This document shows, piece after piece, positions 54,840-55,301 of a stretch of DNA of 64,000 bases. How positions within the stretch are numbered: the stretch's first letter is position 1; each line of letters begins with the position of its first letter. The DNA is taken from assembly GCA_017512805.1 (NCBI GenBank), contig JAFWES010000051.1, positions 43,312-107,311 of the forward strand. Direction: 5' to 3'. Both the position numbers and the translations under genes were made by a program. The notes under the pieces were generated by a model. It ran no database searches. It had not been told where the DNA came from and was given only the letters and a program-made list of their open reading frames with translations. This DNA is from Clostridia bacterium (lineage in GTDB: Bacteria > Bacillota > Clostridia > Christensenellales > Aristaeellaceae).

Positions 54840-54977
54840 GTACCCCATGTCAAGGACAAATCTTTGCAACCATGGACAATGAAAGTGAGAAATCCAGGTC
54901 AGCAACCTTCCTGCTGGGATGATCAATAACAAGAATAAATGAACGAAGTAGGATAACAACAATGGTCCGAGTAGCTA

Positions 54978-55289
54978 GCCGCCGATCCAGCAGCCGTCCG
55001 GGCGTGTAGGCGGCCGTCTGAGGTACGAGGACGTGCCAGCCTGCCGCCCGGTAATGGCTGCTGGTTCGGCGGCAATAAAACGTTCGATAGCAGTCACCTC
55101 CTTAGGAAAGGACGGAGCAGGAAATTTTCTGGCGTGGGGTTTACGTTGGGCGGTCGGTGTGATAGCCTTGCCGTAGGCGCCAGCCCAGGGGACGCCTATA
55201 CGGATGGCGGCCGCGGGGATGGCCCTTAAGGCTGGCTATTCGCGCCGACAGGGCCCCGACGTCAACCCCCAGAGGTAAATTTCCGGGGG
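54978..55289 (-). ncRNA. Highly structured non-coding cassette inside the IS element
   Basis: Two domains can be drawn by hand. Domain I is one long hairpin: 54978-54995 pairs with 55056-55073 (17 of 18), continued by 54998-55004/55045-55051, 55006-55011/55039-55044 and 55012-55018/55030-55037. Domain II is closed by 55135-55150 with 55255-55271 (about 15 bp with one mismatch and one bulge), then GTCGG/CCGAC (55153-55157/55245-55249), ATAGCC/GGCTAT (55162-55167/55234-55239) and CCGTAGGCG/CGCC-TA-TACGG (55171-55179/55193-55203). The CCCCC at 55266-55270 can alternatively pair with GGGGG at 55285-55289. Between the domains the minus strand reads AAGGAGGTGA. The strand is inferred from the transposase direction. 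Confidence 0.6.
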
Positions 55290-55301
55290 AATCGGACATT
55301 C

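What the first reader, a model, noticed from the sequence alone, without database searches (positions are those of the whole stretch)
54840..55301. Large, multi-helix non-coding RNA-like cassette carried by an IS3-family element
Seen: 462 bp without a gene between the orfB stop and the IS end, holding a 96-nt hairpin with about 38 paired positions and a second domain closed by a ~15-bp long-range stem with three nested helices. A CCCCC tract has two mutually exclusive partners, as in a switch. Read in the transposase direction, the second domain is followed by AAGGAGGTGA and then the long hairpin. Known: IS110 bridge RNAs and IscB/TnpB omega RNAs show that transposons can carry guide RNAs; standard IS3 elements do not. 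Inference: this is either a relic of another element's RNA leader (the layout, structured RNA directly before a strong Shine-Dalgarno, reminds me of HEARO/omega RNA before iscB, from memory only) or a new passenger RNA of an IS3 group.
Basis: partly seen in the sequence, partly recalled or inferred. Interest (0 to 1): 0.85.

Follow-up and report, generated by a model that had tools for sequence, protein, structure and literature searches.

The report
Twin structured hairpins inside an IS3
A jumping gene in a bacterial genome carries two very long hairpins between its transposase gene and its end; relatives of these hairpins sit in or against other, unrelated jumping genes, and related jumping genes of the same genus carry in that spot a different small structured RNA with what look like its own start and stop signals.

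Summary
Observation largely confirmed. Between the IS3 orfB stop and the IS end lie two real hairpins, H1 (54,978-55,073; z -9.6) and D2 (about 55,118-55,289; z -4.5), without Rfam match. The HEARO/omega-RNA reading is not supported. The nearest orfB relatives lack the pair, so it is not a standing part of this IS3 lineage. The modules recur by other IS genes: H1 twice more in this genome, joined to an IS256-type end; D2 inside an IS21, in the leader of another IS3, and at a shared IS-like end in three genomes; a third module (X, with D2's apical loop) behind a truncated IS256 and a complete IS110 transposase gene. Unexpectedly, five of five same-genus IS3 copies (orfB 59-63% identical) and three further loci hold in this slot a different, covarying ~86-nt RNA unit (-10-like box, hairpin, terminator). 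Best reading: H1/D2 are exchangeable palindromic RNA-like modules hitchhiking in an IS slot; function is inferred, not shown.

The parts
54839..56917 (-). IS3-family element (orfA+orfB); ends GTACCCC..GGGGTAC; exact ends uncertain by 1-2 bases
   Evidence: inverted ends found without mismatch at 54,840-54,858 (+) and 56,898-56,916 (-) (chance expectation for that pattern with 2 mismatches 1.16, three found); orfB = NF033516 IS3 family transposase, orfA = HTH_Tnp_2
55302..56315 (-). orfB transposase, 337 aa
   Evidence: rve, HTH_21; NF033516 253.8 bits, cut-off 160
56312..56731 (-). orfA, 139 aa
   Evidence: HTH_Tnp_2
54978..55073 (+). H1: 96-nt long hairpin; better fold on + strand (-81.4 vs -71.1 kcal/mol); two further copies in the genome (G000:C65, C14; the C14 copy lacks part of one arm), both joined to an IS256-type right end
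55118..55289 (+). D2: ~172-nt long interrupted hairpin with AAATTT-type inverted ends and 9-nt apical loop TATACGGAT (+ strand)
   Evidence: homologues in G068 (in an IS21) and G132 (leader of another IS3); starts of copies at contig ends of G004, G006 (two), G062
55094..55103 (-). AAGGAGGTGA (Shine-Dalgarno-like on the minus strand); not kept at the C65 locus, probably chance
   Evidence: sequence; compare C65
55266..55289 (+). CCCCC tract with two possible partners (D2 stem or local GGGGG hairpin)
54502..54882 (+). 5' part of an alpha-amylase-type gene into which the IS3 is inserted (continues at ~56,920 to 58,258)
   Evidence: Alpha-amylase_N; ORFs

Best explanation
H1 and D2 are two exchangeable, long-palindromic, RNA-like modules that have entered the non-coding slot between orfB and the right end of this one IS3 copy and now ride with it. 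They belong to a small set of such modules (H1, D2, X) that in this genus and its order sit beside or inside IS elements of at least four families (IS3, IS21, IS256, IS110), mostly between the transposase gene and the IS end, where an insertion does little harm to transposition. Shown: the modules exist, recur at unlinked IS loci, and D2 and X helices contain paired changes. Supported: strand-specific G.U use points to an RNA read on the window + strand, antisense to this transposase. Inferred: that they are (or were) transcribed, that a module is itself mobile or exchanged by recombination, and that its structure serves the module or its carrier, most simply as a hitchhiking non-autonomous element of the ERIC/MITE kind. 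The slot is also where same-genus IS3 copies keep a different, better-defined small RNA (-10-like box, covarying hairpin, terminator) facing inward from the right end.
For: H1 at two further places in the genome, 89-90% identical, both fused to one IS256-type right end. D2 homologue, 72%, inside an IS21 of G068 between the ORF behind istB and the apparent IS end. A covariance model found D2 in G132 (32.6 bits, E 2.9e-5 for one genome, 396 searched) between an IS3 end and orfA; the four best other orfA matches (L069, L070, L073, L074) have short leaders without it. In G004, two contigs of G006 and G062 the start of D2 lies ~110 bp inside one shared IS-like end (G004 and G006 76% identical over 145 bases, D2 start included); its 27-base start is identical in G004 and G062 and differs by one base in the window. 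X, 82%, behind a truncated IS256 transposase gene (C65) and a complete IS110 one (G066), with the same 11-nt loop and closing pair as D2. Pairs: D2, 13 of 53 with a change on both sides in three sequences; X, 5 of 77 both sides, 7 one side, 0 broken. Strand-symmetric fold-back alignment of nine hairpins: G.T 39, A.C 8 on the + strand. No H1 or D2 match in the 24 named orfB relatives; the tree neighbours are among these.
Against: No expression data. No promoter-like site on the + strand near H1/D2 and no terminator-like site. In D2, 20 of the 53 predicted pairs are broken or gapped in one of the three sequences and the covariation term is small (-0.88); the pairs were predicted from the same few sequences. 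H1 shows no both-sided change between its two full copies. The nine hairpins of the strand test are homologous groups, not nine independent cases; one copy per type gives 16:3 (numbers), and unpaired bases also lean to G+T (77:49, p 0.016), so part of the bias may be composition. The 11-nt loop with G/C neighbours is not rare by itself: 8 hits in 45 genomes against 5 for the reversed pattern. No clear target duplication or exact ends, and no enzyme that would move the modules. Copies in G004, G006, G062 and G028 are cut by contig ends, and G028's carrier is unidentified. The favoured strand is antisense to the transposase in four loci but the same strand as the IS21 genes in G068.
Confidence: 0.55

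Rival explanations
1. Plain DNA palindromes: long inverted repeats that entered the IS and are kept near-perfect by template-switch (quasi-palindrome) correction, with no RNA function.
For: No promoter or terminator in the window copy; H1 shows no both-sided changes; such correction makes paired changes without selection (recalled mechanism).
Against: Correction is blind to strand, yet G.T outnumbers A.C 39:8 on one strand, and A.G outnumbers C.T 32:12 over the nine hairpins (20:1 in the window and G068 copies of D2, but 4:3 in G132).
Confidence: 0.25
2. H1/D2 is a strongly diverged version of the small RNA that other IS3 copies carry in the same slot.
For: Same slot, same apparent RNA strand.
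Against: The covariance model of that RNA finds nothing in the window (E up to 1); no promoter-terminator pair; H1 and D2 match modules in other IS families instead; the window orfB groups with L012 and L019, not with the RNA carriers.
Confidence: 0.1
3. Insulator: the long hairpins act in whatever transcript crosses them, blocking read-through from the host gene or stabilising the transposase mRNA end.
For: Position between transposase gene and IS end in IS3, IS21, IS256 and behind the IS110 transposase gene.
Against: One copy lies in the leader of an IS3 orfA; no U-tract; would not need sequence-conserved tips (26-base H1 core identical in all three copies).
Confidence: 0.08
4. Relic of an IscB/TnpB/HEARO RNA leader.
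For: A structured stretch precedes AAGGAGGTGA on the minus strand.
Against: No Rfam match; no nuclease gene seen; favoured strand is the opposite one; the Shine-Dalgarno-like stretch is not kept at C65.
Confidence: 0.02

Closest known systems
ERIC/RU-type and other small non-autonomous palindromic elements (MITE-like)
   Same: 100-170 bp, long imperfect palindrome, AT-rich inverted ends in D2, dispersed, no ORF of note
   Different: very low copy number; the copies whose setting could be read lie in or against IS elements; two modules (X and D2) share one apical loop
IS10 RNA-OUT and other IS-encoded antisense RNAs (recalled; papers in the listing)
   Same: for the RNA of the same-genus IS3 copies: small RNA unit with -10-like box and terminator at an IS end, on the strand opposite to the transposase
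   Different: lies beyond the transposase 3' end, not across its start; the longest perfect match to the transposase strand is 7-10 nt in four copies tested; core hairpin has invariant internal loops
IS1111/IS110 seekRNA or bridge RNA
   Same: structured RNA region downstream of a transposase gene inside an IS (PMC11187229, passages seen)
   Different: H1/D2 sit in an IS with an rve-type (DDE) transposase; behind the IS110 gene of G066 the region shared with other IS110 copies lies beyond X and is a different sequence (by eye)
REP/RAYT palindromes
   Same: palindromic, dispersed
   Different: REPs are 20-40 bp and high copy (PMC3733652, abstract start in the listing); H1/D2 are 96-172 nt, with 3 and 1 copies in the own genome

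Membership tests
HEARO / IscB omega RNA | match to the Rfam covariance model | tested here: not met
   no match at gathering (window), up to E 5 (window stretch) or up to E 3 (four loci)
HEARO / IscB omega RNA | adjacent iscB gene | tested here: not met
   ORF lists of the window and of four homologous loci inspected; of ten proteins sent to Pfam eight are transposase parts, one an amylase part, one without family
IS110/IS1111 bridge or seekRNA | RNA region conserved with a DEDD transposase | tested here: not met
   X lies behind 1 of 4 complete IS110 genes and not behind 1 partial one read; a sixth hit (L104, fragment) was not examined; the shared region is another
Small palindromic element (MITE/ERIC-like) | long imperfect palindrome with inverted ends, no ORF | tested here: met
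   two small frames over X had no NCBIfam match
Small palindromic element (MITE/ERIC-like) | dispersed at unlinked loci | tested here: met
   H1 three places in G000; D2 in the window, G068, G132 and at contig ends in three genomes
Small palindromic element (MITE/ERIC-like) | target duplication / precise empty site | tested here: inconclusive
   four orfA relatives of the G132 locus show a leader without the hairpin, but no clear duplication was seen
Standing passenger RNA of this IS3 lineage | present in close IS3 relatives | tested here: not met
IS-encoded sRNA (same-genus IS3 copies, not the window) | covarying structure | tested here: met
   7 sequences, structure drawn by me on the alignment: 93.1% of cells paired (shuffles 79.9), 16 cells changed on both sides (6.5; 0 of 500 shuffles reach it), slid controls at most 3; weaker: 7 pairs with a both-sided change against 4.9 (35 of 500 shuffles reach it), 12 further pair types against 10.2 (95 of 500)
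IS-encoded sRNA (same-genus IS3 copies, not the window) | own promoter and terminator | tested here: inconclusive
   loose pattern: -10-like box in 8 of 8 (TATAAT or TATACT in 4, TAAACT in 2, TAGACT and TAAGCT once each); T-run 29-33 nt after the core in 8 of 8, with a stem before it in 7 of 8; the promoter tool was not run on these loci and there are no transcript data

The most novel reading that the evidence does not exclude
In this genus and its order the stretch between transposase and IS end is a docking slot for small structured RNAs: a defined promoter-hairpin-terminator RNA in many IS3 copies, and the H1, D2 and X modules in IS3, IS21, IS256 and IS110. These RNAs would be an unreported class of transposon-borne sRNA, exchanged between unrelated IS families and acting on transposition (for example by binding transposase or host factors through the invariant loops) rather than by pairing with the transposase start.
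Probability: 0.3. Interest if true: 0.8.

Novelty: new variant of a known kind. Interest (0 to 1): 0.55.

Why it matters
DDE-type insertion sequences are usually described as transposase plus ends. Structured modules with paired changes that are shared between four IS families, and a covarying small RNA unit in the same slot of other IS3 elements, would mean that non-coding RNA cargo is not limited to IS110 and IS200/IS605 relatives. The IS3 RNA unit (about 86 nt with -10-like box and terminator) is small and testable, and lets one ask whether simple IS elements regulate or guide themselves with RNA.

Tried and rejected
Rfam scans: nothing but chance hits and a tRNA. Searches of phages and plasmids with H1/D2, X or the IS3 RNA found nothing usable (one plasmid match at E 0.09). 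Seven viral-contig patterns gave nothing; one search gave one further copy of the IS3 RNA. One search listed 217 plasmid records with orfA relatives under 60% identity; I did not look at their leaders. One search's pattern followed the G028 form and missed the C65 copy in the own genome, so its 0 of 391 is uninformative. Of 8 loop-pattern hits, three (G018, two in G020) show no matching hairpin and look coding (by eye) and were dropped; the reversed pattern gave 5 hits. Of 9 hits to the D2-end pattern in 10 genomes, five were D2 starts already known; two others (G035, G068:C15) lack the hairpin and two (G064, G068:C31) were not examined. Bridge-RNA identity of X was rejected. IS21 as the usual home of D2 was not supported: 1 of 7 istB loci has it, four of the seven with under 600 nt of 3' sequence. 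A coding role of X in the antisense frame was considered, but C65 has a one-base shift and no NCBIfam model matched. A background scan of 375 kb (window plus 20 stretches of the own genome) ranked H1 third; 12 other top stretches that I printed look like terminators, repeats or gene-internal structure (by eye). Perfect pairing of the IS3 RNA with the transposase strand: longest 7-10 nt in four copies, 7-10 nt on the other strand too. Seven paper searches (listings only, except passages of PMC11187229) showed no report of an RNA in the 3' region of IS3 elements; most subscription papers are not covered.

Full report
What is there. The window holds an IS3-family element at about 54,839-56,917, genes on the minus strand, with matching ends (GTACCCC..GGGGTAC); orfB matches the NCBIfam IS3 transposase model and orfA a transposon HTH family. 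It splits an alpha-amylase-type gene. Between the orfB stop and the IS end are about 460 bp without an ORF of 60 aa that has a start. They contain two hairpins. H1 is 96 nt (54,978-55,073); a 118-nt stretch with it folds at -81.4 kcal/mol on the plus strand against a shuffle mean of -48.4 (z -9.6). D2 (about 55,118-55,289) is one long interrupted hairpin with AAATTT-type inverted ends (-94.7 against -75.3, z -4.5). The CCCCC tract with two possible partners is real. In a scan of 375 kb of this genome H1 ranked third and D2 nineteenth among 150-nt stretches for folding on both strands.

Not a known RNA. Rfam gives nothing at gathering level in the window and only chance microRNA-family matches below it; four homologous loci gave three chance matches up to E 3. 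I saw no IscB/TnpB-type gene in the ORF lists of these loci.

Not a standing part of the IS. I compared 24 orfB relatives from named genomes. In 14 of the 24 the script located an IS end 18-186 nt after the stop (stops may be overshot where the match ended early); 10 were not resolved. Nine were printed and show no comparable hairpin by eye. BLASTN of the window region found no H1/D2 match in the 24, and fuzzy patterns for the H1 core and the D2 start found none either. In a tree of 32 rows, seven of them with under half of the columns, the window orfB groups with L012 and L019 (97/95).

Homologues of the modules. H1 occurs twice more in the genome, at C65 and C14, 89-90% identical; the C14 copy lacks part of one arm. 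Both run into one type of right end, which matches the left end upstream of the IS256-type transposase gene at C65; that gene is truncated (Transposase_mut, NF033543, both partial). A shorter match to this end alone, without H1, is in G024. D2 has a 72% homologue in G068 between the ORF behind istB and the apparent IS21 end. A model built from those two matched 2 of 396 genomes of the order, the own one and G132 (E 2.9e-5, 32.6 bits); in G132 the hairpin lies between an IS3 end and orfA, and the four best other orfA matches have short leaders without it. The first 28-38 bases of the D2 side also appear at contig ends of G004, G006 (two contigs) and G062, each about 110 bp inside one shared IS-like end. 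A third module, X, lies upstream of H1 at C65 and directly behind a complete IS110 transposase gene in G066 (82%); a contig end in G028 has its loop hairpin. X and D2 share the loop with its closing pair, C-ATCCGTATA-G in minus-strand reading; as a bare pattern it is not enriched (8 hits in 45 genomes, 5 for the reversed pattern). The order D2 then H1 (window) and X then H1 (C65) is the same. The copies whose setting can be read (window, C65, C14, G068, G132, G066) all lie in or against an IS; G028 is undetermined, and G004, G006, G062 rest on an IS-like shared end.

Structure and strand. In three D2 copies 13 of 53 predicted pairs have a change on both sides that keeps the pair, and 20 pairs are broken or gapped in one of the three. 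In the two X copies 5 of 77 pairs changed on both sides, 7 on one side, none broke. H1 has 40 pairs, none with a both-sided change. These structures were predicted from the same sequences, so I added a test without RNA energies: each hairpin was aligned to its own reverse complement with symmetric scores. On the window + strand the mismatches are 39 G.T and 8 A.C (nine hairpins, p 5.5e-6, not independent; one per type 16:3). Controls: G.G+T.T against A.A+C.C 21:13 (p 0.23); unpaired G+T against A+C 77:49 (p 0.016), so some composition bias exists. The three D2, the two full H1 and the two X copies also fold better on that strand. I read this as moderate evidence for an RNA on the + strand, antisense to this transposase; in G068 the same strand is the sense strand of the IS21 genes.

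What else sits in this slot. Five same-genus IS3 copies (G018, G019, G066, G061, G068; orfB 59-63% identical to the window's) all have 224-288 nt between orfB stop and IS end, with one conserved region. A sixth orfB-like locus, in the own genome (L047, 44% over 142 residues, a long branch in the tree), has none. The core is a 54-56 nt hairpin with invariant internal loops (GGAGGA.A.. / ..GAGCG). A fuzzy pattern over the loci in hand added L030 (an uncultured Lachnospiraceae MAG) and G013, and a pattern scan of viral contigs added L132; all eight lie next to an IS3-type right end, seven of them also next to an orfB 3' end, G013 next to the end only. Contig ends in G021 (two) begin the same unit. 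On seven sequences 93.1% of cells pair and 16 cells are changed on both sides (shuffles 6.5; slid structures at most 3); the count of pairs with both-sided change, 7 against 4.9, is weaker, 35 of 500 shuffles reach it. The model finds only its seven members among 100 sources and not the window, then L132 at 75.3 bits. A loose -10-like box is upstream in 8 of 8 and a T-run follows the core by 29-33 nt in 8 of 8, with a stem before it in 7 of 8. Rfam has no match there in the five loci tested. This looks like a small autonomous RNA gene facing inward on the strand opposite to orfB. It is not what lies in the window, but it makes the slot interesting.

How it most likely works. Shown: modules, their recurrence at IS loci, paired changes in D2 and X. 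Supported: RNA on the + strand. Inferred: H1 and D2 are hitchhiking, palindromic, RNA-like modules that were inserted or recombined into a tolerated slot of the IS; any benefit to the IS is unproven. Rival readings (plain DNA palindromes, a diverged form of the IS3 RNA, insulators, an omega-RNA relic) are weighed in the rival list.

Papers. PMC11187229: abstract and passages on the location of the IS1111/IS110 non-coding region. PMC3733652, PMC2759123 and the others: search listings with abstract starts only. IS10 RNA-OUT details and quasi-palindrome correction are recalled. My seven paper searches showed no report of an RNA in the 3' region of IS3 elements.

Noticed in passing
L034:1059-1145 and the corresponding places in L035, L036, L037, L038, L030, L042, L132: Conserved ~86-nt RNA unit (-10-like box, covarying hairpin with invariant loops, terminator) between orfB and the right end of IS3 elements, antisense to orfB (L042: IS end only); no Rfam match in the five loci tested.
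   Followed up: partly
window 35,611-35,890: Strong strand-specific fold (-93 on +, -43 on - for 190 nt at 35,641), as extreme for its GC as the finding itself.
   Followed up: no
window 34,381-34,600 and 32,521-32,740: Further GC-rich stretches with unusually strong folds.
   Followed up: no
window 54,502-54,882 and ~56,920-58,258: Alpha-amylase-type gene split by the IS3.
   Followed up: partly
L103, L100, L101, L102 and L083/L099, downstream of IS110 transposase genes: A region shared, by eye, by the five IS110 copies read, probably their own seekRNA/bridge-type RNA; other hairpins sit before it in G066:C57 and G007.
   Followed up: partly
L117:5881-6030: Tandem GGAGACAGGGGACGGTTC-type palindromes in the own genome, reminiscent (recalled) of RAYT-associated repeats.
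   Followed up: no
window 55,094-55,104 (+): TCACCTCCTTA between H1 and D2 resembles the 16S anti-Shine-Dalgarno sequence (recalled); not kept at C65, so probably chance.
   Followed up: partly
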